A stretch of 64,000 nucleotides of DNA, from contig NZ_BOOP01000048.1 in assembly GCF_016863295.1 (NCBI RefSeq), forward strand, positions 1 through 64,000, given 5' to 3'. The DNA comes from Planotetraspora phitsanulokensis. GTDB lineage: Bacteria; Actinomycetota; Actinomycetes; Streptosporangiales; Streptosporangiaceae. This document shows, piece after piece, positions 28,316 through 56,893 of the stretch (position 1 is its first letter; each line of letters opens with the position of its first letter). The translations under genes were made by a program, and so were the position numbers. Below the pieces are notes generated by a model, which was given only the letters and a program-made list of their open reading frames with translations, ran no database searches and was not told where the DNA came from.

Positions 28316-30196
28316 TCAGGCGGCCATGCCGAATGCGAAGCGGTCCAGCTCGATGCCCAGGATGGCCTCGACGACCGCGCAGGTGAGGACCTCGGCCATG
28401 GGCGGCGGCACGGCGTTGCCGATCAGTCGGACGATGTCCCGCTGCGTCTTGGCGACGAACTGGTAGTCGTCCGGGAAGGACTGCATGCGCTGCAACTCCC
28501 GCTTATTGAGCATCCGGAACTTGATCGACGAGACGTCGACCTTGCCGTCCGGGGTGAGCAGCGCCCACCGGTCGCGGGTGGGCAGCGTCCCGACCGGCTC
28601 CGACACGGGGTTCACGCTGCCGTTGCCGTAGTACGACATGAGCAGCGATTCGTGCAGTCCGGGCACGGTGACGAGCGACTGGTGCCCGGTCTGGGTGATG
28701 GTCCGCACGGGCTCGTCGAACGTCGTGCAGTGCTCGCGCCCGTCGCCCTTGCTGCCGTTGTTACGCATGACGAACCCGGCGGGCGGCTCGAACCCGGGGG
28801 GAACGCCGAGTCCGTGGTGGAACCCGCCGGCCGTGACCGCGTGGGCGGGGTCCTCGTAGGCGGGCCTGGACTTGAGCAGGTCACCGCCGCCGCGCATGGG
28901 GAACATCAGCGGCTGCGGCCCGTCCGGCGGGCTGACGAGCGCGTGGTTGGAGCCGTCCGCCATGACGGTCGCGGTGGGGTCGGTGTGCGGGTTGGTGTTC
29001 CGGGCGCGGCCGGACCTCAGCAACGTCAGGAACGCATCGGGCGCGAACGCCAGCCCCGACTCCAGCCGCGTCGTCTGCGTCCGGAGCGGCTCGCTGCTCG
29101 ACTTGGCCTGCTTGCCGTCGCGTCCTTCGCAGGGCACGACCAGGGCGTTGGCCTCGCGGGTCGTGAGCGTCCGTACCGGCTCGTCGACCCCGGTGGTGTC
29201 GTTGTTCCACGTGCCGCCCGCGGGGGTGAGGAACGGCTTGATCCAGTGCTCCTCGACCCCGGCCCTGACCCGGTTGATCGTCGTGGGCGCCAGGCCCTCG
29301 GGCTTGTCCTTGGTCTTCTTCCGCGACCCGATCGGCGTGCCGAGGTCGGTCCAGTCGATACCGGCCGCGGCGGGCAGCACGGGCGGCTCGACCATCTGGC
29401 CCTTGCAACCCAGCTCCGGGCAGACGTAGTAGTACTGGCCGTTCTTCGGGCCGTAGACGCCCATGTCCTGGCCGGGCTGCTTCCACGCCTTTACGGCCTG
29501 GATCCAGCCGCCGTGGCGGTGGCAGTAGGCGTAGGGGTCGAACCACTTGCGGTAGTTCGGCACTCGGCCGACCGACTCGTGGATGCCGACGATGAGCATC
29601 CGGTTGCGAGACTGCGGGGTCGGCGCCAAGGTCCGTCCCTGGACGTGCATCGCGTTGATGGGGATGACTTTGACGATGTAGCCGAGCTTCCGCAGCTCCC
29701 GGATCCACCGGTCCCAGTGGGCCCAGAGCCGGGCTTCCTTGACGTTCTCGACTCCGAAGCCGAGGACGGGCCGGCCGTACTTGTCCTGGCAGTGCCGCAG
29801 GTAGGTGACGACCTCCTCCATCAGGGCCCGGCTGCGCATGCCCGCCTTCTGGTCCTCGGTGAGGTCCTCCAACTCAGCCCACAAGGCGAGCTGGTTCTCC
29901 TTGTCGAACCACCGCTTGTCGCCGCGCGCCCCGGAGAAGCGGGGGCAGGCCGGCGATGCCCAGAAGAACGGGGCGTACGGAAACCGCTCGATGGCGTCCT
30001 GCTTCTGGACGTCACCGAGCCAGAAGTCGACATCGGGGTGGTTCGCTCGGTACGTCCACTCGCAGGGTTCGGCGTGGTTGGCCGCGAACGCGACCCTCAT
30101 GCCGGGGACGGCGTTGATGCCGGTTCCGGAGCCGCCACCTCCGGCGAACATCTCGGCCGCAGTGAGGTCGTCAACGCCGACGAATCGGTTCAGCAT
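28316..30196 (-). CDS. DNA (cytosine-5) methyltransferase with repeated target-recognition region
   Basis: A 626-residue protein. Motif I is LTAAEMFAGGGGSGTGI, motif IV ASPACPRFSGARG with the catalytic Cys, motif VI VLGFGVENV, motif VIII PQSRNRMLI, and motifs IX/X LNKRELQRMQSFPDD and IGNAVPPPMAEVL. Between VIII and IX lies an unusually long region with about six copies of a unit such as VDEPVRTLTTREANALV, FDEPVRTITQTGHQSLV and VSEPVGTLPTRDRWALL. The enzyme methylates C5 of cytosine in a target set by that region. ATG 30196 follows GAAGGAAAG. It probably protects the element from restriction; no cognate endonuclease is adjacent. Confidence 0.88.
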   Translation of the reverse strand: MLNRFVGVDDLTAAEMFAGGGGSGTGINAVPGMRVAFAANHAEPCEWTYRANHPDVDFWLGDVQKQDAIERFPYAPFFWASPACPRFSGARGDKRWFDKENQLALWAELEDLTEDQKAGMRSRALMEEVVTYLRHCQDKYGRPVLGFGVENVKEARLWAHWDRWIRELRKLGYIVKVIPINAMHVQGRTLAPTPQSRNRMLIVGIHESVGRVPNYRKWFDPYAYCHRHGGWIQAVKAWKQPGQDMGVYGPKNGQYYYVCPELGCKGQMVEPPVLPAAAGIDWTDLGTPIGSRKKTKDKPEGLAPTTINRVRAGVEEHWIKPFLTPAGGTWNNDTTGVDEPVRTLTTREANALVVPCEGRDGKQAKSSSEPLRTQTTRLESGLAFAPDAFLTLLRSGRARNTNPHTDPTATVMADGSNHALVSPPDGPQPLMFPMRGGGDLLKSRPAYEDPAHAVTAGGFHHGLGVPPGFEPPAGFVMRNNGSKGDGREHCTTFDEPVRTITQTGHQSLVTVPGLHESLLMSYYGNGSVNPVSEPVGTLPTRDRWALLTPDGKVDVSSIKFRMLNKRELQRMQSFPDDYQFVAKTQRDIVRLIGNAVPPPMAEVLTCAVVEAILGIELDRFAFGMAA

Positions 30197-30266: not shown

Positions 30267-31895
30267 TTACGCCTCGGGCGCGGGGATGATCGCGATGACC
30301 GTGTTGGCGTTGGTGGCAGGGGCGAACGACCCCGCGGGCAGCGGCTCGAACCATCCGCCGCGCTCGTCGACCATGGCCCGGAACCTCTCGGCGTCCTTGG
30401 TCTGGCGGTAGATGACCGAGGCGCCCATGACCGCGACGAGCAGGCCGCCGGGCTTCACGAACTTCGTTGCGTGGGCCACGTGGTAGAGGTCCTTGCCGTC
30501 CGAGAACGGCGGGTTCATCACGACCCGGTCGTAGACGCGCTCCTCCCCTCGCGCCAAGAAGAGGAAGTCGCGGATGTCGACGCGGTTCAGGTCGGGCACA
30601 CGCTCGACGAGGATGTTCGCCAGGTCATGGCTGATCTCGACGCAGTCCACGACCGCGCCCCGCTCGACGGCGGCCGCGGCGATGTTGCCGGTGCCCGCCG
30701 AGGGCTCGAGGACGGCCATGCCGGGATGGATGTCGGCCAGTTCCATGAGCCGGTCGACGACCATGGGCGGCGATACGAACGCCTCCAGGGAGCGCGACAC
30801 CTGGACGTTGGCCATCTCCGTCTTCGCCTTGAGCTGGTCGGTGTCGACCTGCGGGACTTCGACCTTCGGCGCCGCCGGCCGCTTGGCCGCCGCACGTCTG
30901 GGTGCGAGGACGGTCGGCCCGTCTTCGCCGTGCGGGCACTCGATGCCCCTGATCTCGGTGAACTTCACCTTGTCGGGCCAGGAGTAACCGGAGTCGGCGG
31001 ACACCGTGACCCGGTTGACCTTGAGGATGGTGCTCCGTCGCCGCCAGTAGTGCACCGTGTCCCCGACATGGACGTTGTGCGGGCCGTACGTGATGTGCGT
31101 CCCCTCGGCTTCGGCGGCCTCGATCTGCTTGCGGTCGTACTCCAGCTGGTTGTCCAGCTGGGCCTTGCGGGAAAGCAGCCGCTCGCGGTGGTCGCCGGTC
31201 GCGGGCTCGTGCACCTCGATGTAGTACGGGTTGCCCCTGTGGTCGAGGTGCCGCCGCTCGTAGCCGTCCAGTTCCTTCTGGATCTTCCGAAGCTCGGCCT
31301 CGGCCGTCTGGATGCGGCGCGCGGTCACGTCCGGTCTCGCCGAGCGCGCGGCCGCGCTGCCGACAGCGTTCGCCCGGCGGGCGGCGTCCTGCGCCTCCGC
31401 GTCCTCGGCGATGCTCGTCCGCATGGCCGAGTCCATCCGCTTCCTGTCGCGCTGCGCCCCGCGCTCGGAGTGGTGCCCGACGAGGATGGGCTGCCCGCCG
31501 GCGAACCGCTCGGACAGCTGGTCCGCTCGGTCGGCGGCTGCGGCCGCGTTGCCTGCGTGGCGTTCGGCCTTCGTGGTGAGTGCGTCGCGCCGGTCGTCGA
31601 GCCGGTCGGCCTGGTCGGCGAGGACCTGGGCGCGGTCGCGGTGCTCGTCGTCGATCTCGACGTCGACCTCGAACCCGGCCTGGCGCAGGGCCTCGGCGGC
31701 CTTGTTGATCGCGTATCGGTCGGCGACGCGGTCGCGGGAGTTGCGCAGGCCGATCATCCGCATCGACGGGAAGTACTTGAACCCGCCGTTCTCCCACTTG
31801 CGGACGATGTCGTAGACGCCGTCGCCCTTGTCGGTGCCGTAGATGAGCGTGCCGTCTTCGTGGTTGTGGCGGATCGTGATGGTGCCGGTTGGCAT
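30267..31895 (-). CDS. DUF3560 domain fused to an N6-adenine-type methyltransferase
   Basis: A 542-residue protein. The N-terminus (TITIRHNHEDGTLIYGTDKG, KYFPSMRMIGLRNSRDRVAD, EVDVEIDDEHRDRAQVL) is a DUF3560 domain. The middle is a long Ala/Arg coiled-coil-like stretch with a beta insert. The C-terminal 200 residues are a Rossmann methyltransferase: AVLEPSAGTGNIAAAAVERG (SAM motif I), VDCVEIS, and VVMNPPFSDGKD, the NPPF motif of amino-methylating DNA MTases. ATG 31895 has an AGAAGGACC site. Such fusions occur on plasmids and phages and probably modify the element's DNA against restriction. Confidence 0.8.
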   Translation of the reverse strand: MPTGTITIRHNHEDGTLIYGTDKGDGVYDIVRKWENGGFKYFPSMRMIGLRNSRDRVADRYAINKAAEALRQAGFEVDVEIDDEHRDRAQVLADQADRLDDRRDALTTKAERHAGNAAAAADRADQLSERFAGGQPILVGHHSERGAQRDRKRMDSAMRTSIAEDAEAQDAARRANAVGSAAARSARPDVTARRIQTAEAELRKIQKELDGYERRHLDHRGNPYYIEVHEPATGDHRERLLSRKAQLDNQLEYDRKQIEAAEAEGTHITYGPHNVHVGDTVHYWRRRSTILKVNRVTVSADSGYSWPDKVKFTEIRGIECPHGEDGPTVLAPRRAAAKRPAAPKVEVPQVDTDQLKAKTEMANVQVSRSLEAFVSPPMVVDRLMELADIHPGMAVLEPSAGTGNIAAAAVERGAVVDCVEISHDLANILVERVPDLNRVDIRDFLFLARGEERVYDRVVMNPPFSDGKDLYHVAHATKFVKPGGLLVAVMGASVIYRQTKDAERFRAMVDERGGWFEPLPAGSFAPATNANTVIAIIPAPEA

Positions 31896-31916
31896 TGTGG
31901 CTGGTCCTTCTGTTGA

Positions 31917-31930
31917 TAGCGGTTCCGCTG
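31917..31930. promoter_or_regulatory. TAGCGG-type palindrome, copy 5 (one mismatch)
   Basis: TAGCGGTTCCGCTG in the gap upstream of the DUF3560-methyltransferase start, about 21 bases before its ATG and just right of the ribosome-binding site. Confidence 0.45.
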
Positions 31931-31934
31931 TCTG

Positions 31935-31969
31935 CCTGCTGGCCCCGTGTGGCGTCCGGGGCCAGCAGG
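31935..31969 (-). terminator. hairpin terminator
   Basis: A 13-bp stem (CCTGCTGGCCCCG with complement) and a nine-base loop after the stop at 31979. Confidence 0.55.
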
Positions 31970-31978
31970 TGGGGGTGT

Positions 31979-32296
31979 TCAGTCGTAGCTGACGATCTCG
32001 AAGCCGTCCGGGAGCTCCACCGGCTGATTGCAGGTGTTGCACTCGAAGCCGTCGCCCTCGAAGTTGCCATCGCCCATAGAGGCGGCGATCTCGCCCGGAC
32101 CGACGATGTCCAGCTCGTTCTGCCGTGTCGCGATGTCGAGCTCGACGATGTCGTCAGCCACCCCGCAGTCCGGGTACGGGCAGACCAGGACGCCGTCACG
32201 GACCAGCGCCCGCGGGTTGGCTCCCAGGACCACGCCTTCGAGCACTGTCGGGGCCAGCTCGGCGCTGCTGGACGGTGCGGGCAGTTCGGTGCTCAC
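31979..32296 (-). CDS. small zinc-ribbon protein
   Basis: A 105-residue protein from GTG 32296 (GTGA). Two pairs, CPYPDCGVADDIVE and FECNTCNQPVELP, make a zinc ribbon; the rest is acidic. Function unknown. Confidence 0.5.
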   Translation of the reverse strand: MSTELPAPSSSAELAPTVLEGVVLGANPRALVRDGVLVCPYPDCGVADDIVELDIATRQNELDIVGPGEIAASMGDGNFEGDGFECNTCNQPVELPDGFEIVSYD

Positions 32297-48368: not shown

Positions 48369-48645
48369 CGGGTCTCGGTCCTTTCAGCGAGGGGTGAGAG
48401 ACCTGGTGTTCAGGGCCTCCTCGGAGTTGGCGCTCCGGGTGAGGCCCGCTGCGTTTCTGGTGGCGGTTGGCGGGGCTGAGGGGAAAATTCGCGATCTGCT
48501 ACGCTGTGTTTTACGTAAAACAGCGTCGCAGTAGCTATGCTGCATCACCTGTCGATCACTGTCAAGCCCACAGGTAACGCGCCCGCCCGCTGTCCGTAAT
48601 ACGATCAGCGCCAGCCGTACCGATGATCAGGAGAGGACCCGCCCC
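48369..48645. promoter_or_regulatory. divergent control region, transfer operon / GntR regulator
   Basis: A 277-base gap. The perfect palindrome TGTTTTACGTAAAACA at 48507-48522, extended by ACGCTGT/ACAGCGT, stands out as an AT-rich island. It is a good operator for the adjacent GntR regulator, which would repress the leftward transfer operon and itself, as KorSA does in pSAM2. Confidence 0.65.
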
Positions 48646-49386
48646 GTGCCCGTCAAGAGGTCCGTCGAGGTCACAGCAGACCTCCGGGCCAAGATCCTCG
48701 ACGGCACCTACCCCGCGGGCGAACCACTCCCCCGCTCCGACATCCTCCAGGCCATGTACGGCGTCGGCCCCTACGCCATCACCACGGCGATGCGAGAGCT
48801 CAAGTCCGAGGGCCTGGTCTGGCGGGTCGCGAACAAAGGGATGATCGTCCGGCGGCCACCCGAGCCCATCACGGTGTCCATCGTCATCCCGCCGCTCGAG
48901 GACCACGCCCACTGGGCGGACGCATGCCGCCGCGCAGGCCTCGACGGCCAACTCGACGACAAGACGACCCGCTTCGAATTCGCTGACCACTACATCGCCC
49001 AGGCCCTGCACCTCGACGACCGCGCCACCGTTATGCAGGTCCTTCGACTGGGCACCGTCGACGACCAGGCGGCGTGCATTGACCGCGTCAGCTACCCGGC
49101 CGACCTCGTGCCAGGCCGGCCCAGCCGCGACGCCGTACGCAACATCCTGTCCCGTGTTGACCCCGCCACCGCGTACGTCGACCTCCGCATCTTCTGGCGC
49201 CAAGCCGAGGGGCCCGAGTCGACAACGCTCAAGGTCAGCGGAGGTGTGGGCGTCATCGACATCACCCGGGTCATTTACGACAGCACCGGTCAGCCTGTCG
49301 AGCTGCTGCACCGCGTGGCCAACGCCCAGCGCGTCCAGCTGGACGAGCAGCGTCGCCGCCTATCCCCCGGCCAACCGAACGACTGA
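48646..49386 (+). CDS. GntR/HutC-type (UTRA) transfer regulator, KorSA-like
   Basis: A 246-residue protein from GTG 48646. The N-terminal winged helix (VTADLRAKILDGTYPAGEPL, RSDILQAMYGVGPYAITTAM, RELKSEGLVWRVANKGMIV) is GntR type, although the GVGPYAITTAM recognition helix diverges from the usual S(R)xTVRxAL. The C-terminal region (AHWADACRRAG through VIDITRVIYDSTGQPVELLH) fits the UTRA ligand-binding fold. In Streptomyces conjugative elements such regulators prevent lethal TraB overexpression. It faces the transfer operon across a strong palindrome. Confidence 0.75.
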   Translation: MPVKRSVEVTADLRAKILDGTYPAGEPLPRSDILQAMYGVGPYAITTAMRELKSEGLVWRVANKGMIVRRPPEPITVSIVIPPLEDHAHWADACRRAGLDGQLDDKTTRFEFADHYIAQALHLDDRATVMQVLRLGTVDDQAACIDRVSYPADLVPGRPSRDAVRNILSRVDPATAYVDLRIFWRQAEGPESTTLKVSGGVGVIDITRVIYDSTGQPVELLHRVANAQRVQLDEQRRRLSPGQPND

Positions 49387-49536: not shown

Positions 49537-50742
49537 ATGAACGAGATTAGCACCGGCGACCCGACAAGGGACCTCGCGCAGAACCTTCGAGGTTGGCGGA
49601 AGCGGCGCGGCCTCACCCAGGCTGAGCTGGCTATAGCCGCCAAGGTGTCGAAGAGCCTCGTGCAGAAAATCGAGCAGGGCATCGCCGGCCAGACAACGCT
49701 GGAGACCGTGCACCGGCTGGCCATCGCGTTGAAAGTCCCCACGACAGAGCTGGTCGGCGCGCACGGCGACGCCCGCGAACCGCACACGTCCACGGTGCTC
49801 CCGCCGGAGGTATGGGAACAGACAGGCAGGGCTCTCGCTGGGAAGTTCGGTTACCCCGACGAGGAACCCACCGTCGCCGGTGTGTCCTCCGCACTCGACT
49901 CACTGAAACCACTCCTGGCGGGAAACCAGTACCGGGAGGTGGCGCACCTTCTGCCGTCGCTGATCCGCGACGCGGACGCGCTCAATGGCGCGGGACGGGG
50001 CATCCGGTCGCGGGTGCTGAATACCGCCGGTTGGGTCCTCACCCAGGTCAGACAGTTCGAGCTCGCCGGGGCGACACTCCACCACGCCAGGGACGCCGCA
50101 GAGGACCATCTCGACGAGGCGGCCGCCGTCAACACCCTCGTCTGGCTGCGACTCCGGGAAGGACGCCTCGACGACGCCCGCCGGCTGGCCACCGAGTGGG
50201 CCGACCGGATCGAGCCGCGCATGTCCCGAGCGACCGAGCGGGAGCTCACCCTGTGGGGGCGGCTCGTGCTCGGCATCAGCAACGCCGCGGTGCGGGACAA
50301 CCGACCGGGCGAGGCGGCAGACACGATCCGACTCGCGCAGACCGCCGCCACGGCGGTCGGCAGGGAGGTCCTGTCGGATACCTCCACCACCCGGACGTTT
50401 GGCCCCGTCACGGTCGCGATGATCCGGGCCGAGAACGCGGCGGTGCAGGATCGGCCCGACGAGGTGTTGCGGATCGCTGAGCGGATCCCCGCCGGTGGCG
50501 GGCTCCTGGTGGCCACCTCGGCGTCGCGGAACCGGCACCGGCTCGACGTCGCGTCCGCCCTGGTGTCCACGCGCCGCTCGGACGAGGCCGTCGCGGTGCT
50601 GACCGATCTGGCGTCGCATTCCCCGCAATGGCTATCTCAGCAGCGGTACGCCAAGGACGTGGTCGGCCGCATCGTCGGCAGGCGCCGCACACTGAGCACG
50701 GGCATGCGGACCCTGGCAGATCTGACCGGTGTAGTGCTCTGA
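49537..50742 (+). CDS. XRE-family regulator with TPR-like sensor domain
   Basis: A 401-residue protein. Residues about 10-70 are an XRE HTH: LAQNLRGWRKRRGLTQAELA, IAAKVSKSLVQKIEQG, TTLETVHRLAIALKV. The remaining 300 residues are helix pairs of TPR type (GWVLTQVRQFELAGATLHHA, AAVNTLVWLRLREGRLDDAR, RLVLGISNAAVRDNRPGEAA), as in Streptomyces regulators that sense peptides or small molecules. ATG 49537 lies behind GGAAAG. It is first in the rightward cargo cluster and flanked by two inverted repeats (49460-49477 and 50759-50800), so it probably controls the cluster. Confidence 0.75.
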   Translation: MNEISTGDPTRDLAQNLRGWRKRRGLTQAELAIAAKVSKSLVQKIEQGIAGQTTLETVHRLAIALKVPTTELVGAHGDAREPHTSTVLPPEVWEQTGRALAGKFGYPDEEPTVAGVSSALDSLKPLLAGNQYREVAHLLPSLIRDADALNGAGRGIRSRVLNTAGWVLTQVRQFELAGATLHHARDAAEDHLDEAAAVNTLVWLRLREGRLDDARRLATEWADRIEPRMSRATERELTLWGRLVLGISNAAVRDNRPGEAADTIRLAQTAATAVGREVLSDTSTTRTFGPVTVAMIRAENAAVQDRPDEVLRIAERIPAGGGLLVATSASRNRHRLDVASALVSTRRSDEAVAVLTDLASHSPQWLSQQRYAKDVVGRIVGRRRTLSTGMRTLADLTGVVL

Positions 50743-50758
50743 CCTGGGCATGTAACGC

Positions 50759-50800
50759 TCATTGATACTTTCGTCCGCCGCCGGGCGAAAGTATCAATGA
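50759..50800. promoter_or_regulatory. 15-bp perfect inverted repeat between regulator and cargo genes
   Basis: TCATTGATACTTTCG, a 12-base spacer, then its exact complement. AT-rich arms and a spaced dyad suggest an operator for the XRE protein at the promoter of the downstream genes. Attenuation by the RNA hairpin is the alternative. Confidence 0.55.
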
Positions 50801-50832
50801 CAGCGGGTGATCGCGTTCGTACGGTCGGAACT

Positions 50833-51273
50833 GTGATCTCCGCCACTCCCCCGCCCGCCACCGCCACAGGCACAGTCGAGGTAATCCGCGAGCAGCGGAT
50901 GAGCCGTGCATCGCAGCTCGCACACAGCCTCGCCAACGAACTCGAAACCCGGCACAACATCCCCGCCCAGGTGCTCATCTTCGGCGGGAGTGCCTGCGTG
51001 TCTGTGTTCTATGGCCTGGTCGCGAGGACTGACGGGAGCGCCATCTGGTGGATGGTGCCCGACGTTGCACCCGAGCCCAGGAAGCGGCCCCTTCACACGC
51101 TCGCATACTTCGTGCCGAGCGCCGCCGACCGGATTGCTCAGCACTACGCGACACTGCGCGGCGCTGACCTCGGTGAGCAGCTGGCGGCCGGCCGCATCAC
51201 CCTCGTGGGTGCCGAACTCGTCGCCGAGCACATCAACGGGGAGGCGAGCCATGTTGCTGCTTACCCAGTTTGA
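50833..51273 (+). CDS. unknown cargo-cluster protein 1
   Basis: A 146-residue protein. The start is uncertain: GTG 50833 is chosen because ATG 50797 lies inside the inverted repeat; ATG 50899 is also possible. Visible elements are MSRASQLAHSLANELETRHN, IPAQVLIFGGSACVSVFYGL, WWMVPDVAP and a C-terminal helix-strand (LGEQLAAGRITLVGAELVAE). It looks like a small alpha/beta domain, without catalytic motif. It overlaps the next gene by 23 bases. Confidence 0.5.
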   Translation: MISATPPPATATGTVEVIREQRMSRASQLAHSLANELETRHNIPAQVLIFGGSACVSVFYGLVARTDGSAIWWMVPDVAPEPRKRPLHTLAYFVPSAADRIAQHYATLRGADLGEQLAAGRITLVGAELVAEHINGEASHVAAYPV

Positions 51274-51565
51274 TCAGGCGAACCTGGACCACGCCGCGCG
51301 TCTCCAGTCGCACTTTCCCGCCTGGGTCGTCATGTACGGCCTGTACCACCGAACGTTCATTGCCTTTCACGCTGGTGACCCGCGTGAATGCCGAATCGTC
51401 GAGGCCGAAACGCCTGCCGACCTTTGGGACGGCATGCAGCAGGCCGCGGCGGAGGTCTGGCGGACCTCCCATCTCCTTCCCAGCCGCGCCCACCCCAGTA
51501 GCGGCACCCGGGAGGTCCGCCAGTTCGACCCCGCCCCCACGCGACCCATGGAGGTCGTGACCTGA
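51251..51565 (+). CDS. unknown cargo-cluster protein 2
   Basis: A 104-residue protein from ATG 51251. LLLTQFDQANLDHAARLQSH, FPAWVVMYGLYHRTFIAFHA, then PADLWDGMQQAAAEVWRTSH and a disordered tail. The size and the LWDGMQQAA helix recall small actinomycete accessory proteins next to XRE-TPR regulators. Function unknown; the overlap with the previous gene suggests a pair. Confidence 0.5.
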   Translation: MLLLTQFDQANLDHAARLQSHFPAWVVMYGLYHRTFIAFHAGDPRECRIVEAETPADLWDGMQQAAAEVWRTSHLLPSRAHPSSGTREVRQFDPAPTRPMEVVT

Positions 51566-51641
51566 GACCGGTCCTGGGGCGGCTGCCGAAGGCGAGGGGC
51601 GCCCTGGGACCGCACCATCCACCCACGAGTAGGGAGTGCAG

Positions 51642-52682
51642 ATGAAGATCGGCTACAGCTTCTGGGGCTTCCTCGGGCCCGGCATCGTGGACACGCCAGA
51701 CGGCGGCCGGTTCTGGCGTCGCGGAATCGTCGACGGGCTCCTCTCCAAGGGGCACAGCGTTGTCCTGCTCCAGCAGGACCGCGACTTGAAGGAGGCTGGC
51801 ACCAGACTGCCGTACCAGTGGGCCACCGACCTGCCGCCACTGGACGTGCTCTTCTGCGAATGGCGGTGGCCACTGCCTGGCCGGAACACCACCACATGCG
51901 GCGAGCCCGGTCATACCTGCGACCTGCACCGGCAGGCGGAACTGATCAACCACTACACCCGCGAACTCAGCACCCCAACGGTGCTGTGGGACACCGACCG
52001 GCAGATGCCAGCGGACGACCCGTTACGCGCGATGCCGCACGTCATTGTCTGCGACACGGCGATTTGGCCCAACCCGCCGGCGCCGAGCCTGCTGACGATG
52101 GTCCCGGACAAGCTGCTCGACACGGCCAGCCCGGAAATCCTCGCCGCCATCGAACGGCCCCTGGATCTCACCTACGTGGGAAACCAGTACGACCGCGACG
52201 AGGCGTTCGACACCTTCTTCGCCCCCGCCGCGGCGCACGTGCCACACCGGGTCGCTGGCAAATGGACCCGCACCGATCCCTGGCCCTACGTCAACTTCAC
52301 CGGGCGCGCACCGTTCACCGAAGTTGAGCCCATCTACCGCAGCGGCCTGGCCACGGTGCTGCTCATGCCCGACCGGTACTCCTCGACCGCCAACATCAGC
52401 CAGCGATTCCCCGAAGCGGTACTAGCCGGGTGCCTACCGCTCACCCCCACGACGCTGGTCAACCACGACCAGATCACCCCTGCCGCGCTGCACGTCGACG
52501 ACGGCGCTGACGTCCTTGACCGGGTCACCTGGCTCCGCAGTATCCAAGGCACCCGCGAGCACGTCGACCTCATCGCCGAGTGCCTGTCCCGGCTCGACCG
52601 GTTTCGGCATTCCCGCCAGCTGAGCGAGCTCGAACGGTACATGACCACCCTCACCCGACCATTGAAGGAGGCGGATCGGTGA
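51642..52682 (+). CDS. GT-B-type glycosyltransferase (CgeB-like)
   Basis: A 346-residue protein from ATG 51642 (GGGAG five bases upstream). The N-terminus MKIGYSFWGFLGPGIVDTPD is a Rossmann start; the C-terminal domain YRSGLATVLLMPDRYSSTAN, then ISQRFPEAVLAGCLPLTP carries the family's R-x-FE-xxAxG donor-site pattern (here RFPEAVLAG). CgeB-like enzymes transfer sugars from nucleotide-sugar donors. A Cys/His insert (TTTCGEPGHTCDLHR) is unusual. Its stop overlaps the start of the TS-family gene (GTGA), so the glycosyl acceptor may be a product of that enzyme. Confidence 0.7.
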   Translation: MKIGYSFWGFLGPGIVDTPDGGRFWRRGIVDGLLSKGHSVVLLQQDRDLKEAGTRLPYQWATDLPPLDVLFCEWRWPLPGRNTTTCGEPGHTCDLHRQAELINHYTRELSTPTVLWDTDRQMPADDPLRAMPHVIVCDTAIWPNPPAPSLLTMVPDKLLDTASPEILAAIERPLDLTYVGNQYDRDEAFDTFFAPAAAHVPHRVAGKWTRTDPWPYVNFTGRAPFTEVEPIYRSGLATVLLMPDRYSSTANISQRFPEAVLAGCLPLTPTTLVNHDQITPAALHVDDGADVLDRVTWLRSIQGTREHVDLIAECLSRLDRFRHSRQLSELERYMTTLTRPLKEADR

Positions 52683-53677
52683 CCAGTAGACCCCCCATGC
52701 TGGGCCCGCCACGGTTCGACACATTCCACGCCGCTTACCAGTCAGTGCTGCACCAGCTCCTCGCCGAGCCGCAGTACGCGTCCAGTTCGCGCGGCAAATC
52801 CTCCAGCGAAATCCTCGGCGTGAGCTTCACCCTCACCGACCCGAGGCAGCGCACGCCCTATCTCACGGCTCGTCGCCCGAACATCGTGTTCAACCACGCC
52901 GAGGCCCTGTGGTACCTGGCCGGCCGCGCCGACCTCGACATGATCGGCTACTACGCCCCTCGGCTGCGCGCACTGTCTGCCGATGGCCAGGCCCTGACCG
53001 GGACCGCATACGGGCCGAGGTTGTTCTCCCCGCGCGGCCGCTCCCAGTGGGACCGGGTGGTCGACCTGCTCCGATCCGATCCAGGCAGCAAACGGGCCAC
53101 GATGCTGATCATGCGGCCGGACGAGCTGGTCAACCCTGCCAACCCGGACGTGGCCTGCACCCTCGGCGTGCAGTTCCTCATCCGCGACAACGCGCTCCAC
53201 ACCGTGGCGTTCATGCGAGGCAACGACGCCTGGATCGGGCTGGTCTGCGACGTGTTCAGCTTCACCCTGATCGCCGAATACACCGCGTTGGCGCTCGGCG
53301 TCGACCTCGGCACGTACACCCATCTGGTCTCGTCGATGCACCTCAACGTGCAGGACCTGGACCGCGCGGCGGCCGCCGTCGCGGAACCGACGCTTGCGGT
53401 CCCTCCCACCGTGGCGATGCCGCGCACTTCCCCGCAGGTACTCGACACGCTCATGACCTGGGAGCGGCATCTCCGCCACAACGAGAGGCCGCTCAACCTG
53501 GGCAGCAGCGAGATATCCCACCTGGGCCCGTACTGGGTGCAGGTCCTGCTGCTCTTCGAGGCATACCGGCAGGTCACCCACCACGACGGCCCGATCAGCG
53601 GCCGCGTCCTGCGCGAGCTCACACCCGCCCACCAGTGGTTACTCGCGGCACGCTGGCCAGACCGGGTGCCGTCATGA
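52679..53677 (+). CDS. thymidylate-synthase-family nucleotide (hydroxy)methyltransferase, probably cytosine-specific
   Basis: A 332-residue protein from GTG 52679 (AAGGAGG upstream). Family landmarks: EALWYLAG about 75-82, GTAYGPRLF 108-116, the active-site Cys160 in DVACTLGVQFL, MRGNDAWIGLVCDVFSFTLI 179-198 and SSMHLNVQDL 218-227. At the position of E. coli ThyA Asn177 it has Asp191 (CDVFSF for FNIASY). Asp here is known to favour cytosine over uracil nucleotides, as in T4 dCMP hydroxymethylase. The Tyr of the THLY motif is replaced (MHLN). The inferred reaction is methylation or hydroxymethylation of dCMP or CMP with a folate donor. Coupled to the glycosyltransferase and the NDP kinase. Confidence 0.75.
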   Translation: MTSRPPMLGPPRFDTFHAAYQSVLHQLLAEPQYASSSRGKSSSEILGVSFTLTDPRQRTPYLTARRPNIVFNHAEALWYLAGRADLDMIGYYAPRLRALSADGQALTGTAYGPRLFSPRGRSQWDRVVDLLRSDPGSKRATMLIMRPDELVNPANPDVACTLGVQFLIRDNALHTVAFMRGNDAWIGLVCDVFSFTLIAEYTALALGVDLGTYTHLVSSMHLNVQDLDRAAAAVAEPTLAVPPTVAMPRTSPQVLDTLMTWERHLRHNERPLNLGSSEISHLGPYWVQVLLLFEAYRQVTHHDGPISGRVLRELTPAHQWLLAARWPDRVPS

Positions 53678-54204
53678 CGGCCGAGCAGGACCTCCCCGAG
53701 GTTCGCGGGCGAATCGACTGGTCCCGCTGGTCGGTCATCCTGCTCAAGCCCGACTGCGTTGCCAGGGGCCTGGTCGACGACGTCATCTCTCGACTCTCCG
53801 ACCACGTCCGGGTGACCCACGCGCGTCCGGTCACCACCACCGAACAGCAGATCATGGCCCACTACGACGACATGCTCGCCCCGGAGATGTCGGCCGAGTT
53901 CGGGTTCGACATCGCCGCCGACCTGCGGCGGCTGTACGTAGGCCAACAGGTCTGCGTCGCCCTGGGCCACGGCGACCAAGCGACAGAGCGGCTACGCACA
54001 CTGATCGGCCCCAACGACCCCACCATCGCCGGCCCCGACACCATTCGCGGCCACTTCGGCGTCGACAGCCTCCACGCAGCCCGCGCGCGAGGCCAGCTCA
54101 TGAACAACCTCATCCATACGTCCGACCGCCCCGACTGCGTCGAACGCGACCTCGGCATTTGGTACGGACCCACCGGCATCTCCCTACTCGAGGAGCCACG
54201 ATGA
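53674..54204 (+). CDS. nucleoside-diphosphate-kinase-family protein
   Basis: A 176-residue protein from ATG 53674 (ATGA overlap). N-terminal SVILLKPDCVARGLVDDVIS is the NDK phosphate-site Lys strand; the later segment IGPNDPTIAGPDTIRGHFGV and MNNLIHTSDRPDCVERDLGI contains the catalytic His in NNLIHTSD (canonical NAVHGSD). A longer loop after YVGQQVCVALG and an N-terminal extension distinguish it from housekeeping Ndk (about 140 residues). It would convert NDP to NTP, fitting activation of a modified nucleotide made by the preceding enzyme. Confidence 0.75.
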   Translation: MTAEQDLPEVRGRIDWSRWSVILLKPDCVARGLVDDVISRLSDHVRVTHARPVTTTEQQIMAHYDDMLAPEMSAEFGFDIAADLRRLYVGQQVCVALGHGDQATERLRTLIGPNDPTIAGPDTIRGHFGVDSLHAARARGQLMNNLIHTSDRPDCVERDLGIWYGPTGISLLEEPR

Positions 54205-55481
54205 CCGCAGAGCCCGTCTTCATCCCCGCCACGCTCTCCCGGGCCGACACCGTCGCACTGCGCCCTGGCACTCTGCGGCTCATGCCGACCGACCAGCAGG
54301 CCGGGCTGGACCCCTACATGCAGCAGATCATCACCAACCGCAAGTCCGGGCTGTCGCTGAACCACATCATCGGCTGCCCGCTCGACTGCGGTTACTGCGT
54401 CCGGCACTTCTGGGGCAACTTCGAGCAGAAGATCCCGCAGCTGCTCGTCACCACCGAAGAGGCCGTCGAAATGCTCGTCGGACACAGCGAGTTTCTGCCG
54501 CACACCACCCCGATCCAGCTGTTCAACAAGGCCACGGACCCATTCCTGCCCGGCGTGAAGCCGCACACCTTCCAGGTGCTGGAGGAGCTCGACCGGCGCG
54601 GCCTGACCAACCTGGTGCTCATCATCACCCGGTTCCACGTCACCGAGCAGGACATGACCCGGCTGGAGCAGCTGTCGCACGTCCGGCCGACTCTGCTGTT
54701 CACCTACAGCGGCATCACCGATGACCGGGTGGAGCCGATCGCCCGGTCGACCACCACCGTCGACTCACTGCGTACGGCGGCCGCCGGCCGGTCCCGGACG
54801 AAGGTCATCTTGTACTGGCGGCCGATCGTGCCGGGCTGGAACGACGATCCGGACACCATGGCCCACGTGCTCAACGTCGGCGCGGATGTCGACGCGATCG
54901 TGTTCACCGGCTACTACCACAAGGAAGAGAACGCCACCTACCTGCGTGACCTCGGGGTGCCGGTGCCGTACGAAGAGAACTGGCAGCGGCGGAAGGTCCT
55001 GCCCGGCGACCTCGACGCCCGCGTAATCCAGGCGTGGCGGGACTCCGGCATCGCGACGCCTCTGTACCGCAAGACATCATGCGGGGTGACAGCCTCGTGG
55101 GAAGTCGCCGACTACAACGGGCACCTCGGCGTGCCGGAGCTGTGCGACATCTGCCCGGAAGAACAGGTCGCGCGGTGCCGGGCGGCTCTGCGAGCACCCA
55201 CAGGGCAGGAGTTCCGCGCGGCCTTGGACCTGTTCGGATTCGACCCGGAAACCCCGTTCGTGGTCGAGGACGGTCACGTCCTGACAGGTACGCTCGGAGA
55301 GCAGCGCCGGTACGCCCTTCAGCACTACTTCGGCTACCAGATGTGGGAAGTCAAGCACCCTCACGTCCATGCCGCCCACGGCCGAGCGCTCGAAGGGTAC
55401 ACGCTGACACCCAGCGAGCAGGCCCAGCTCGACGAAGCCCGCGACCGGCTCGCCGCGGCAGCCAGGCACGACGACGACTGA
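54201..55481 (+). CDS. radical SAM enzyme
   Basis: A 426-residue protein from ATG 54201 (ATGA overlap). IIGCPLDCGYCVRHFWGN gives CxxxCxxC at residues 59, 63 and 66 for the [4Fe-4S] cluster; the barrel follows with TPIQLFNKATDPFLPG and NLVLIITRFHVTEQDM. The C-terminal part has additional cysteines (KTSCGVTAS and LCDICPEEQVARC), possibly a second cluster. It resembles the spore photoproduct lyase-like branch in the first 250 residues but lacks a clear match for the lyase Cys. The reaction is unknown; in this context it could alter a modified nucleotide or sugar. Confidence 0.75.
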   Translation: MTAEPVFIPATLSRADTVALRPGTLRLMPTDQQAGLDPYMQQIITNRKSGLSLNHIIGCPLDCGYCVRHFWGNFEQKIPQLLVTTEEAVEMLVGHSEFLPHTTPIQLFNKATDPFLPGVKPHTFQVLEELDRRGLTNLVLIITRFHVTEQDMTRLEQLSHVRPTLLFTYSGITDDRVEPIARSTTTVDSLRTAAAGRSRTKVILYWRPIVPGWNDDPDTMAHVLNVGADVDAIVFTGYYHKEENATYLRDLGVPVPYEENWQRRKVLPGDLDARVIQAWRDSGIATPLYRKTSCGVTASWEVADYNGHLGVPELCDICPEEQVARCRAALRAPTGQEFRAALDLFGFDPETPFVVEDGHVLTGTLGEQRRYALQHYFGYQMWEVKHPHVHAAHGRALEGYTLTPSEQAQLDEARDRLAAAARHDDD

Positions 55482-55493
55482 CCAGGACGGCAT

Positions 55494-56084
55494 ATGAATC
55501 TCACCACCTGGCCCCGAAGGGTCCTCGTTGTCGACGTCGAAGGCAACGGCGCGCAGCCGCCCGACCTGATCGAGGTCGCGGCCGTCCACGTCGCTGGCGC
55601 CGACATCGGGGCGGCTCGACAGTGGCTCATTCGCCCGCCCGCGCCCATCCATCAGCGCGTCACCCGCATCCACGGCATCACCAACGCGGACGTCGCCAAC
55701 GCCCCCCTGTGGGAAGAGGTCGCCGACGACATCCGGGAAACGCTGACGGGCGCATGGCTCGTCGCCCACAACGCCACGGTGGAGCACGGGACCCTCACCC
55801 GCCACCTGCCCGAATGGAAGCCCGAAGGGGTCATCGACACGCTGCGCGCGGCACGCGCCGTCTACAGCGGCCCATCCGGGTATGGCCTTGACGCGCTCAT
55901 CCAACACACCGGCATCGACGTTTCCGGCATCCCCGGGCAGCGCCACAGGGCCGCCTACGACGCCACCGCTACCGCGATGCTGCTACTCGACATCGCCGCC
56001 CACTTCCGCACCTGGGAAGAGCTGGCGAAGGCGGCCACACCGCCCGGGATACCCGCGCCCATCCAGGAGGACGCCCTATGGTGA
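55494..56084 (+). CDS. DEDDh exonuclease, DnaQ-like
   Basis: A 196-residue protein from ATG 55494. Exo I is VLVVDVEGNGAQPPDLIEVA, Exo II AWLVAHNATVEHGTL, Exo III RHRAAYDATATAMLLLDIAA with His before Asp, and the typical RIHGITNADV is present. The Exo I motif reads DVEGNG rather than DTETTG; the acidic pair is preserved. It would release nucleotides from 3' ends or clean up nucleotide pools. In the cluster it may remove unmodified or wrongly modified DNA; this is inferred. Confidence 0.75.
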   Translation: MNLTTWPRRVLVVDVEGNGAQPPDLIEVAAVHVAGADIGAARQWLIRPPAPIHQRVTRIHGITNADVANAPLWEEVADDIRETLTGAWLVAHNATVEHGTLTRHLPEWKPEGVIDTLRAARAVYSGPSGYGLDALIQHTGIDVSGIPGQRHRAAYDATATAMLLLDIAAHFRTWEELAKAATPPGIPAPIQEDALW

Positions 56085-56848
56085 CCAGCGCTCCGGGCGG
56101 CACCATCACCATCGCGGGTAAGACCGTCTCTCGGCTCGGTTTCGGCACCATGCGACTGACCGGCCCCGGCACCTGGGGTAACCCTCCAAGCCCCGCCGAC
56201 GCCACAGCCGTCCTCCGCGAGGCTGTGCACCACGGGATCACTCACATAGACACGGCTGACGCCTACGGCCCGCACACCGTGGAGGAACTGGTCCGCAGGG
56301 CGTTCCACCCGTACCCAGATGACCTGCTGATCGCCACGAAGGTCGGCTTGGTACGGCCCGGCCCGAACATCTGGTGGCCGCTCGGCCGGCCGGACTACTT
56401 ACGGGCCGCCGTGGAAGCCAGCCTCCGCCGACTGGGCACCGACCGGATCGACCTGTGCTACCTGCACCGCGTGGACCCGAACGTGCCGCTCAGCGACCAG
56501 ATCGGCGTGCTCGCCGAGCTCCAGCGTGAAGGGAAAATCGCGGCGGTCGGCCTGTCCAAGGTGACGCCCAAGCAGATCGACGAGGCGTCCCGCGTCGTGT
56601 CGATCGCCGCGGTGCAGAACGTTCTCAACCTCGACGAGCCGCACGACCGGGCCGTGGACTACTGCCGTAGTCGCTACATCCCGTACGTGGCCTACCGGCC
56701 TTTGAACGCTGGCAAGCTCACCTCGGACGGCGGCCGCGACGCACTGCAATGGCTGCTGTCCCTCGGCGATCACGTGGTCCCGATCCCCGGCACTAGCTCG
56801 CTGTCGCACCTCCACGCGATCCTCCACGGCGCGACCTGCGCCGCGTAA
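56078..56848 (+). CDS. aldo/keto reductase
   Basis: A 256-residue protein with the AKR tetrad: Asp58 in ITHIDTADAYGPHTVEELVR, Tyr63, Lys88 in DDLLIATKVGL and His130 in LCYLHRVDP. The barrel ends with VVPIPGTSSLSHLHAILHG, the NADPH-binding segment. It is somewhat short (about 300 is common) and lacks the last helices. It would reduce an aldehyde or ketone using NADPH. ATG 56078 overlaps the exonuclease stop by seven bases, so it belongs to the same operon. Substrate unknown. Confidence 0.8.
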   Translation: MVTSAPGGTITIAGKTVSRLGFGTMRLTGPGTWGNPPSPADATAVLREAVHHGITHIDTADAYGPHTVEELVRRAFHPYPDDLLIATKVGLVRPGPNIWWPLGRPDYLRAAVEASLRRLGTDRIDLCYLHRVDPNVPLSDQIGVLAELQREGKIAAVGLSKVTPKQIDEASRVVSIAAVQNVLNLDEPHDRAVDYCRSRYIPYVAYRPLNAGKLTSDGGRDALQWLLSLGDHVVPIPGTSSLSHLHAILHGATCAA

Positions 56849-56857
56849 ACGACAAAA

Positions 56858-56893
56858 GACGCCCGCTTCCCCGACGTCGGGGAAGCGGGCGTC
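56858..56893. terminator. 36-bp perfect palindrome, bidirectional terminator
   Basis: GACGCCCGCTTCCCCGAC with its exact complement, ten bases after the reductase stop and ten bases before the end of the convergent protease gene. It separates the cargo cluster from phage late genes. Confidence 0.7.

What the first reader, a model, noticed from the sequence alone, without database searches (positions are those of the whole stretch)
49537..56848. Undescribed nucleotide-modification cargo cluster
Seen: an XRE-TPR regulator, two unknowns, then six genes in tight order (GT-B glycosyltransferase, TS-family enzyme, NDP kinase, radical SAM, DEDDh exonuclease, aldo-keto reductase), with stop/start overlaps from the glycosyltransferase to the radical SAM gene. 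It lies between conjugation genes and phage late genes and is bounded by a 36-bp palindrome. Known: phages that hypermodify DNA pair a TS homologue with nucleotide kinases and glycosyltransferases (T4), and nucleoside antibiotic clusters pair a CMP hydroxymethylase with a glycosyltransferase and radical SAM (mildiomycin). Inferred: this cluster makes a modified, perhaps glycosylated, cytosine nucleotide, either for element DNA or as a small product. I recognise no described system with this exact set.
Basis: partly seen in the sequence, partly recalled or inferred. Interest (0 to 1): 0.88.

Follow-up and report, generated by a model that had tools for sequence, protein, structure and literature searches.

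The report
Prophage cassette making modified cytidine nucleotides
A set of enzyme genes carried by a bacterial prophage, and found again on plasmids and prophages of other bacteria, looks like a pathway that builds an altered RNA building block, and its core sits among anti-virus genes in some bacteria, so it may be a new kind of chemical immune system.

Summary
The cluster is real and recurs. It is prophage cargo: XRE-TPR regulator, two unknowns, GT-B glycosyltransferase (GT), thymidylate-synthase homologue (TS), NDP kinase, radical SAM (rSAM), DEDDh exonuclease (EXO), aldo-keto reductase. TS-NDPK-rSAM-EXO recurs at 54 other fetched actinobacterial loci (3 are repeats). The TS is nearest CMP 5-hydroxymethylase MilA (E 9e-77); 55 of 55 cluster TS have CMP-type Lys133, Ala/Gly176 and Asp186, so 5-hydroxymethyl-CMP, a ribonucleotide, is predicted, which weakens the DNA-modification reading; Tyr218 is lost in 55 of 55. 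The GT's best fold match is T4 beta-glucosyltransferase, narrowly. On alphaproteobacterial plasmids rSAM-EXO-kinase occurs without TS, NDPK or GT; 5 of 7 such loci had named anti-phage genes nearby, against 0 of 7 stretches elsewhere on the same plasmids (names chosen after seeing the loci). Best reading: a regulated mobile pathway making a modified cytidine nucleotide, most likely for intracellular defence; a nucleoside antibiotic is the main rival. No product or activity was shown. Nine answered searches of an open-licence library showed no description.

The parts
49537..50742 (+). XRE-TPR transcriptional regulator, likely controls the operon
   Evidence: HTH_31 E 2e-11; phrog_5823 E 1e-100 full length; 65% identical regulator in the same place in L052
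50760..50799 (.). 14-bp perfect inverted repeat (arms 50760-50773 and 50786-50799), likely operator of the regulator
   Evidence: z -5.4; TTGATACTT-N-A(A/G)GT(A/G)TCAA at the same place in L052 and in no other of the loci held (L001-L111)
50820..50825 (+). putative -10 box TACGGT, 7 bases before GTG 50833 (possible leaderless start of the first unknown gene)
   Evidence: read; L052 has TACGGT six bases before a GTG; promoter reading is inference
50797..51273 (+). unknown protein 1 (ORF from ATG 50797; GTG 50833 is the likelier start, as the ATG lies inside the inverted repeat)
   Evidence: no family; 42% identical protein in L052
51251..51565 (+). unknown protein 2
   Evidence: no family; only weak matches in other loci
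51642..52682 (+). GT-B glycosyltransferase, T4 beta-glucosyltransferase-like fold, with invariant C86, H91, C93, H96
   Evidence: profile vs PDB best T4 BGT E 0.014; model pLDDT 89; Foldseek rank 1 1qkj E 9e-11; invariants in 23 sequences
52679..53677 (+). thymidylate-synthase homologue, predicted CMP 5-hydroxymethylase
   Evidence: MilA 5jnh E 9e-77; K138, C160, G181, D191 stand at MilA K133, C155, A176, D186
53674..54204 (+). nucleoside diphosphate kinase, active-site His148 kept
   Evidence: NDK E 1e-19; His148 invariant in 14 sequences
54201..55481 (+). radical SAM enzyme with CX3CX2C and a second conserved Cys set (C294, C315, C318, C326)
   Evidence: model pLDDT 84; fold matches PFL-AE, spore photoproduct lyase, viperin
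55494..56084 (+). DEDDh 3'-5' exonuclease (motif II Asp replaced by Glu in the window copy)
   Evidence: RNase_T E 3e-19; motifs
56078..56848 (+). aldo-keto reductase
   Evidence: Aldo_ket_red E 2e-52
56858..56893 (.). perfect 36-bp palindrome, likely two-way terminator between convergent genes

Best explanation
A regulated mobile pathway that makes a modified cytidine nucleotide inside the cell, most likely as anti-phage defence. Predicted from family and residues: the TS hydroxymethylates CMP at C5. Inferred: NDPK (with host CMP kinase, or the P-loop kinase that many relatives add) raises it towards the triphosphate; the rSAM enzyme, the one constant member, makes a radical change on the nucleotide; GT and AKR are variable finishing steps (a sugar on the hydroxymethyl group, reduction of a carbonyl). 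The product would poison a phage polymerase or act as a signal, as viperin's ddh-nucleotides block RNA synthesis; the DEDDh exonuclease would clip the analogue from the cell's own 3' ends, and the SAMHD1-like HD protein or MazG-type domain of some relatives would clear it. The regulator, through its inverted repeat, would keep the prophage operon off until needed. Shown: gene order, conservation, residues, wide spread, and anti-phage neighbours of the core in some Alphaproteobacteria. Inferred: every reaction and the role.
For: TS nearest MilA; CMP-type residues 55 of 55, against Arg133 in 15 of 15 of a second TS cluster (residue meaning from PMC5175136, passages). EXO near rSAM in 67 of 68 fetched loci besides the window. 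rSAM-EXO-kinase on plasmids of other phyla; named anti-phage genes in the 7-kb flanks of 5 of 7 alphaproteobacterial loci, 13 of 77 genes, against 0 of 7 and 0 of 293 on the far side of the same plasmids. An HD partner in 4 loci, in L137 related to SAMHD1. Cargo place in a prophage and 9 loci on viral contigs, 3 of them repeats of loci already held. No transporter among the window's nine genes, nor annotated inside the six Streptomyces plasmid clusters read. A viral 3'-5' exoribonuclease excises the viperin product from RNA (PMC9415739, abstract and passages).
Against: No activity, product or phage protection was measured. The rSAM matches no PADLOC model and its fold matches are weak and generic. 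The defence names were chosen after the loci were seen; 2 of the 7 loci and the Nostoc plasmid had none of them, though they had toxin-antitoxin genes, which the control also had (5 of 77 against 5 of 293). Anti-phage neighbours were not tested for the actinobacterial clusters; NCBI calls one neighbour (DUF6415) a natural product biosynthesis protein. TS, NDPK and GT are absent from the alphaproteobacterial core, so defence by the core would not prove defence by the full set. The window exonuclease has Glu for a motif II Asp.
Confidence: 0.42

Rival explanations
1. A specialised-metabolite cluster: hydroxymethyl-cytidine nucleotide is glycosylated and rearranged by the rSAM enzyme into a nucleoside antibiotic or signal that leaves the cell.
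For: MilA homology; mildiomycin pathways also pair MilA with a radical SAM and a glycosyltransferase (recalled); DUF6415 and HATPase-type neighbours of some Streptomyces clusters; a second family pairs a dCMP-type TS with carbamoyltransferase and the same GT, in L070 also with a sugar epimerase and an rSAM-methyltransferase.
Against: No MilB-like N-glycosidase near any of 68 rSAM loci; no transporter in the window cluster or annotated inside six plasmid clusters; a core without TS lies among anti-phage genes on several plasmids; plasmid, provirus and partial copies are frequent.
Confidence: 0.27
2. Nucleic-acid hypermodification: hydroxymethyl-CTP is put into RNA (or, after reduction, DNA) of the element and a T4-like glucosyltransferase adds a sugar, hiding it from nucleases.
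For: GT nearest T4 BGT by profile and fold; GT within 4 kb of a hydroxymethylase-type TS in 30 of 32 cases; NDPK could make the triphosphate; phages do carry distant TS relatives (1,438 records, all under 60% identity).
Against: TS has ribose-type residues in 55 of 55, not the dCMP type of T4; no GT match in 50,697 phage records at E 1e-3; GT in only 7 of 68 rSAM loci besides the window; other GT-B enzymes match the fold nearly as well.
Confidence: 0.13
3. Nucleotide repair or salvage genes gathered on mobile elements, with no special product.
For: Most parts belong to nucleotide metabolism; a P-loop kinase, an HD phosphohydrolase and (in L073, below Pfam's cut-off) a MazG domain accompany some relatives.
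Against: The order is kept across deep rSAM clades, and TS residue 218 is never Tyr (55 of 55), which points to a dedicated substrate.
Confidence: 0.1

Closest known systems
Mildiomycin and bacimethrin pathways (MilA/BcmA CMP 5-hydroxymethylase, MilB N-glycosidase)
   Same: TS is MilA-like (E 9e-77) with the same Lys133 and Asp186; a radical SAM and a glycosyltransferase are also present in mildiomycin (recalled)
   Different: No MilB-like gene near any rSAM locus; NDPK, DEDDh exonuclease and AKR instead; residue 176 is Gly in the window and residue 218 is not Tyr in any of 55
Prokaryotic viperins (SAND enzymes)
   Same: An rSAM enzyme on mobile elements or among defence genes, with nucleotide kinases beside it in relatives (partner kinases of viperins are recalled)
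   Different: No match of the rSAM to any PADLOC model; a DEDDh exonuclease is the near-constant partner; a CMP hydroxymethylase is added in actinobacteria
T4 dCMP hydroxymethylase and beta-glucosyltransferase
   Same: Pairing of a cytosine-specific TS homologue with a BGT-like GT-B enzyme
   Different: CMP-type not dCMP-type residues; no GT match in the phage collection
MetaGPA TS plus carbamoyltransferase pairs (5-carbamoyloxymethylcytosine)
   Same: The second cluster family found here pairs a dCMP-type TS with a carbamoyltransferase and the same GT family (PMC8670742, passages)
   Different: The window cluster has no carbamoyltransferase and a CMP-type TS

Membership tests
MilA-type CMP 5-hydroxymethylase | Closest to MilA among solved structures | tested here: met
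   5jnh E 9e-77, 5b6d 1.4e-76; next a thymidylate synthase 1e-13; T4 dCMP hydroxymethylase 6e-9
MilA-type CMP 5-hydroxymethylase | Lys133, small residue at 176 (Ala in MilA), Asp186, Cys155 | tested here: met
   55 of 55 Lys, Cys, Asp; 176 Ala 30, Gly 25 (window Gly); positions from PMC5175136; 3 of the 55 are repeat fetches
MilA-type CMP 5-hydroxymethylase | Tyr218 binding ribose | tested here: not met
   Asn 42, Gly 7, Cys 4, Ala 1, Arg 1 of 55; so filed as related and works-like, not as a plain member
Mildiomycin/bacimethrin cluster | MilB-like CMP N-glycosidase beside the TS | tested here: not met
   0 of 68 rSAM loci (tblastn, E 1e-6, within 7 kb of the DNA held); 3 of 3 comparison loci L046, L049, L074 have it
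Prokaryotic viperin | rSAM protein matches viperin models | tested here: not met
   no PADLOC match (that PADLOC holds viperin models is recalled); fold match to viperin E 3.8e-4 behind PFL-AE and spore photoproduct lyase
Prokaryotic viperin | Makes ddh-nucleotides and protects from phage | not testable with these tools
   needs assays
T4-type DNA hypermodification | dCMP-type hydroxymethylase (Arg, Ser, Tyr) | tested here: not met
T4-type DNA hypermodification | BGT-like glucosyltransferase | tested here: inconclusive
   best match but weak by sequence (E 0.014) and close to other GT-B enzymes by fold
Anti-phage defence system | Enriched beside known defence genes | tested here: inconclusive
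   alphaproteobacterial core 5 of 7 loci against 0 of 7, names picked afterwards; not tested for the actinobacterial clusters
Anti-phage defence system | Protects cells from phage | not testable with these tools
   needs plaque assays

The most novel reading that the evidence does not exclude
A non-viperin radical-SAM immune system: the rSAM enzyme changes the ribose of a cytidine nucleotide near the 3' carbon, the TS (whose usual 3'-OH contacts, Tyr218 and the Ser equivalent of residue 176, are gone) hydroxymethylates this altered CMP, a BGT-like enzyme may add a sugar, and the result is a chain-terminating or signalling nucleotide from which a DEDDh exonuclease and phosphohydrolases protect the producer; prophages and plasmids of several phyla trade the module.
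Probability: 0.2. Interest if true: 0.93.

Novelty: new variant of a known kind. Interest (0 to 1): 0.74.

Why it matters
Nucleotide analogues made by radical-SAM enzymes are so far tied to viperins and some antibiotics. A second, separate radical-SAM cassette with its own exonuclease, kinases and a CMP hydroxymethylase, its core shared by plasmids and prophages of Actinomycetota, Alphaproteobacteria and a cyanobacterium, would widen chemical immunity, could yield a new antiviral nucleotide or a new nucleoside antibiotic, and gives a testable case of a thymidylate-synthase fold turned to ribonucleotides outside mildiomycin-type pathways.

Tried and rejected
DNA precursor modification of T4 type: rejected as first choice because of CMP-type TS residues. 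Plain mildiomycin-type cluster: no MilB-like gene. Viperin family: no PADLOC match. rSAM against PDB sequences: nothing alone; as a profile two hits at E 0.23 and 0.66, taken as chance. GT against PDB alone: nothing. rSAM and GT in the phage collection: no match. A phylum-wide rSAM search found only the window's genome, 1 of 396; its first look scored at most 4 candidates a genome, and it drew few genomes per genus, while a later search of one genus gave 32 of 392, so I do not use it as a measure of rarity. Circular contig: ends of contig C48 share no exact overlap of 25-127 bases. My first set of left-hand ORFs for Pfam was mostly on the wrong strand and found little; searches used the other strand. 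A ~190-aa protein after the AKR in Streptomyces clusters has no Pfam or PADLOC family; I had thought of it as Nudix-like by eye and dropped that. Literature: nine answered searches showed no paper that, from its listing or the passages read, describes this gene set; most subscription papers are missing from that library, so this is no proof of novelty. Three extra plasmid fetches were near-identical to L138 and L136 and are left out of the counts; locus L139 (Nocardia) and L132 (Nostoc) are also outside the seven-locus comparison. Two of 78 rSAM rows, L061 and L139, are missing from the tree (dropped for stops or length).

What I saw of papers: for PMC5175136, PMC12691670, PMC8670742, PMC10853773, PMC10732462, PMC9415739, PMC9642334 and PMC13118837, the passages returned by a term search (abstract included where matched); all others only in search listings. 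Recalled, from no call: NDPK and AKR active sites, the DEDDh motif scheme, which gene names count as anti-phage (CBASS parts, Shedu, ABC-three-component parts, TIR, anti-phage dGTPase, N-6 methylase), viperin partner kinases, mildiomycin GT and rSAM, that PADLOC holds viperin models.
Full report
What is there. The window lies on contig C48 (95,476 bases) of a 9.17-Mb genome. From 49537 to 56848, on the + strand, are an XRE-TPR regulator, two small unknowns, a GT-B glycosyltransferase (GT), a thymidylate-synthase (TS) homologue, an NDP kinase, a radical SAM (rSAM) enzyme, a DEDDh exonuclease (EXO) and an aldo-keto reductase (AKR). GT/TS, TS/NDPK and NDPK/rSAM overlap by stop-start, and EXO/AKR overlap. 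To the right, on the other strand, are phage peptidase, endolysin and tail genes, then tape measure, major head, portal, terminase and an integrase: the cluster looks like cargo of a prophage. Conjugation genes on the left were not confirmed among the genes tested.

Regulation. Between the regulator and the first unknown gene is a perfect 14-bp inverted repeat (50760-50799). It is kept, with changes, at the same place in L052, and its pattern is in no other of the loci held then (L001-L111). A TACGGT box lies seven bases before a GTG in the window and six in L052. I read this as operator and promoter with a leaderless start; that is inference. The 36-bp palindrome at 56858-56893 is perfect, folds at -41.3 kcal/mol and lies between convergent genes, so it is most simply a terminator.

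It recurs. A TS search of 297 genomes of the order gave a full TS of this type in 22 genomes, and NDPK and rSAM lie next to it in each of the 22 loci read (L001-L022, the window's own included). Shorter pieces of such a TS occur in others (for example G116, G195, G016, G283). Of five genomes of the window's genus sampled, only the window's has this TS; G159 has the second type below. A pattern scan of one genome for each of 84,980 species gave 15 rSAM loci. In a genus that is almost surely Streptomyces (two contigs have the exact lengths of named Streptomyces plasmids and identical rSAM), 32 of 392 genomes have an rSAM match: 20 with full-length copies (22 places), 12 with only partial or weak ones. 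I fetched 20 of the 22 places. Of 87 loci put through one table, 68 have the rSAM: 54 with TS and NDPK, 2 with NDPK only, 12 with neither. EXO is near the rSAM in 67 of 68 (not on the Nostoc plasmid). Three of the 68 are repeat fetches (L069 of L033, L125 of L072, L127 of L073). GT is in 7 of the 68, and in the viral contig L153, where it stands at the other end of the cluster. L052 has regulator, unknown 1, GT, TS, NDPK, rSAM, EXO and AKR like the window, plus a P-loop kinase. Most Streptomyces clusters add that kinase and a ~190-aa protein of no known family, many have two NDPK domains, and L073 has a MazG domain below Pfam's cut-off. An rSAM tree of 76 rows has two deep clades, both with TS-NDPK-rSAM-EXO loci: parts were gained and lost around a nearly fixed rSAM-EXO pair.

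First step. The TS is far closer to MilA, the CMP 5-hydroxymethylase of mildiomycin (E 9e-77), than to thymidylate synthases (1e-13) or T4 dCMP hydroxymethylase (6e-9). A structure study names Lys133 and Ala176 (ribose against deoxyribose) and Asp186 (cytosine) as the deciding residues, and Cys155, His216 and Tyr218 as conserved (PMC5175136, passages). All 55 cluster TS (54 and the window; 3 are repeats) have Lys133, Cys155, Asp186, His216 and Ala or Gly at 176, never Ser; none has Tyr218 (Asn 42, Gly 7, Cys 4, Ala 1, Arg 1). Three MilA-like TS beside a MilB-like gene keep Tyr218. Fifteen TS of a second cluster type have Arg133 and Tyr218, with Ser (12) or Gly (3) at 176. So CMP hydroxymethylation is well predicted, in a pocket changed around the 3' hydroxyl.

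Sugar step. The GT profile's best PDB match is T4 DNA beta-glucosyltransferase, weak (E 0.014); the model (pLDDT 89) gives the same enzyme first (E 9e-11), but other GT-B enzymes follow at once. Of 32 GT matches with E below 1e-100 in 297 genomes, 30 lie within 4 kb of a TS, of the CMP or the dCMP type. The dCMP-type loci form a second conserved family: TS, carbamoyltransferase and GT in 15 of 15 loci fetched, in L070 also an epimerase and an rSAM-methyltransferase. This recalls the published TS-carbamoyltransferase pairs tied to 5-carbamoyloxymethylcytosine (PMC8670742, passages). The link of GT to hydroxymethyl nucleotides is thus strong; its exact acceptor is unknown. No GT match exists in the phage collection, though distant TS relatives are common there (1,438 records, all under 60% identity).

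Radical step. The rSAM has CX3CX2C and a second conserved Cys set, kept from actinobacteria to Nostoc and rhizobia. Its fold matches pyruvate formate-lyase activase, spore photoproduct lyase and viperin, weakly. No Pfam, NCBIfam or PADLOC model claims it firmly; one PHROG of unknown function matches part (E 3e-6).

The core elsewhere. In a tblastn of plasmids, 38 records match the rSAM, 24 over at least 80% of it. On plasmids of Agrobacterium, Rhizobium, Sinorhizobium (two), Mesorhizobium, Labrenzia and Gluconobacter the rSAM is followed by the exonuclease and the P-loop kinase, then in 4 loci an HD phosphohydrolase (that of L137 is related to SAMHD1) and in one an AKR; on a Nostoc plasmid by the kinase. 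A Nocardia plasmid has rSAM-EXO-kinase-AKR. Neighbours include CBASS genes, Shedu, ABC-three-component systems, a TIR protein, an anti-phage dGTPase and an N-6 DNA methylase. In the 7 alphaproteobacterial loci, 13 of 77 flanking genes bear such names (5 of 7 loci); on the opposite side of the same plasmids, in longer stretches, 0 of 293 (0 of 7) (Fisher p 6e-10 by gene, genes being not independent, 0.02 by locus). The names were picked after seeing the loci. Toxin-antitoxin genes differ less, 5 of 77 against 5 of 293 (p 0.04). PADLOC knows the exonuclease only as a generic DEDDh, gives the HD protein a weak dGTPase match and one kinase (L139) a weak match to mads_8, and nothing for the rSAM. 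Nine viral contigs also carry the rSAM, 7 of them with TS and NDPK; three have the same rSAM as loci already held (L148, L149, L154).

Reading. Together: a mobile, regulated pathway that turns CMP into a modified cytidine nucleotide, built around an rSAM-exonuclease pair that, with a kinase, keeps company with anti-phage genes in some bacteria. Defence by a nucleotide analogue is my first choice. The exonuclease then makes sense as self-protection: a viral 3'-5' exoribonuclease removes the viperin product from RNA (PMC9415739, abstract and passages). A nucleoside antibiotic stays a serious rival, chiefly because of MilA and the Streptomyces setting. Nothing here measures a reaction or a phenotype, and the window exonuclease has Glu for one acidic residue (also in L073), which may blunt it.

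Noticed in passing
L070 and L075-L088: A second conserved cluster in 15 of 15 loci fetched: dCMP-type TS, carbamoyltransferase and a GT 52-58% identical to the window's; in L070 also a sugar epimerase and a radical SAM-methyltransferase fusion. Possible hydroxymethyl-dCMP based product.
   Followed up: partly
window 51642-52682 (residues 86-96 of the GT): Cys86, His91, Cys93, His96 are invariant in all 23 GT aligned, a possible metal site in a low-confidence insert of the model.
   Followed up: no
L043, L048, L071, L072, L116-L118, L120, L122, L123, L125, L126, L128: NDPK is doubled in tandem in many Streptomyces clusters.
   Followed up: no
L130, L131: rSAM-EXO-AKR clusters without TS or NDPK but with a thymidylate-kinase-like P-loop protein after the AKR (the kinase name is read from its sequence, not from a family search).
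   Followed up: partly
L046, L049, L074: MilA-like TS beside a nucleoside 2-deoxyribosyltransferase-like gene on plasmids of Streptomyces and Priestia: perhaps bacimethrin- or mildiomycin-like pathways.
   Followed up: partly
window 28319-30196 and 30270-32042 (- strand): C-5 cytosine DNA methylase and a DUF3560 protein with a methyltransferase domain on the same prophage contig.
   Followed up: no
window 48500-48535: A second short inverted repeat (around TTTTACGTAAAA) upstream of a GntR regulator at 48646-49386, outside the cluster.
   Followed up: no
L068 (genome G116): A cut TS of this type near an XRE-TPR relative (41% identical), with no rSAM in the 15 kb held: a decayed copy.
   Followed up: no
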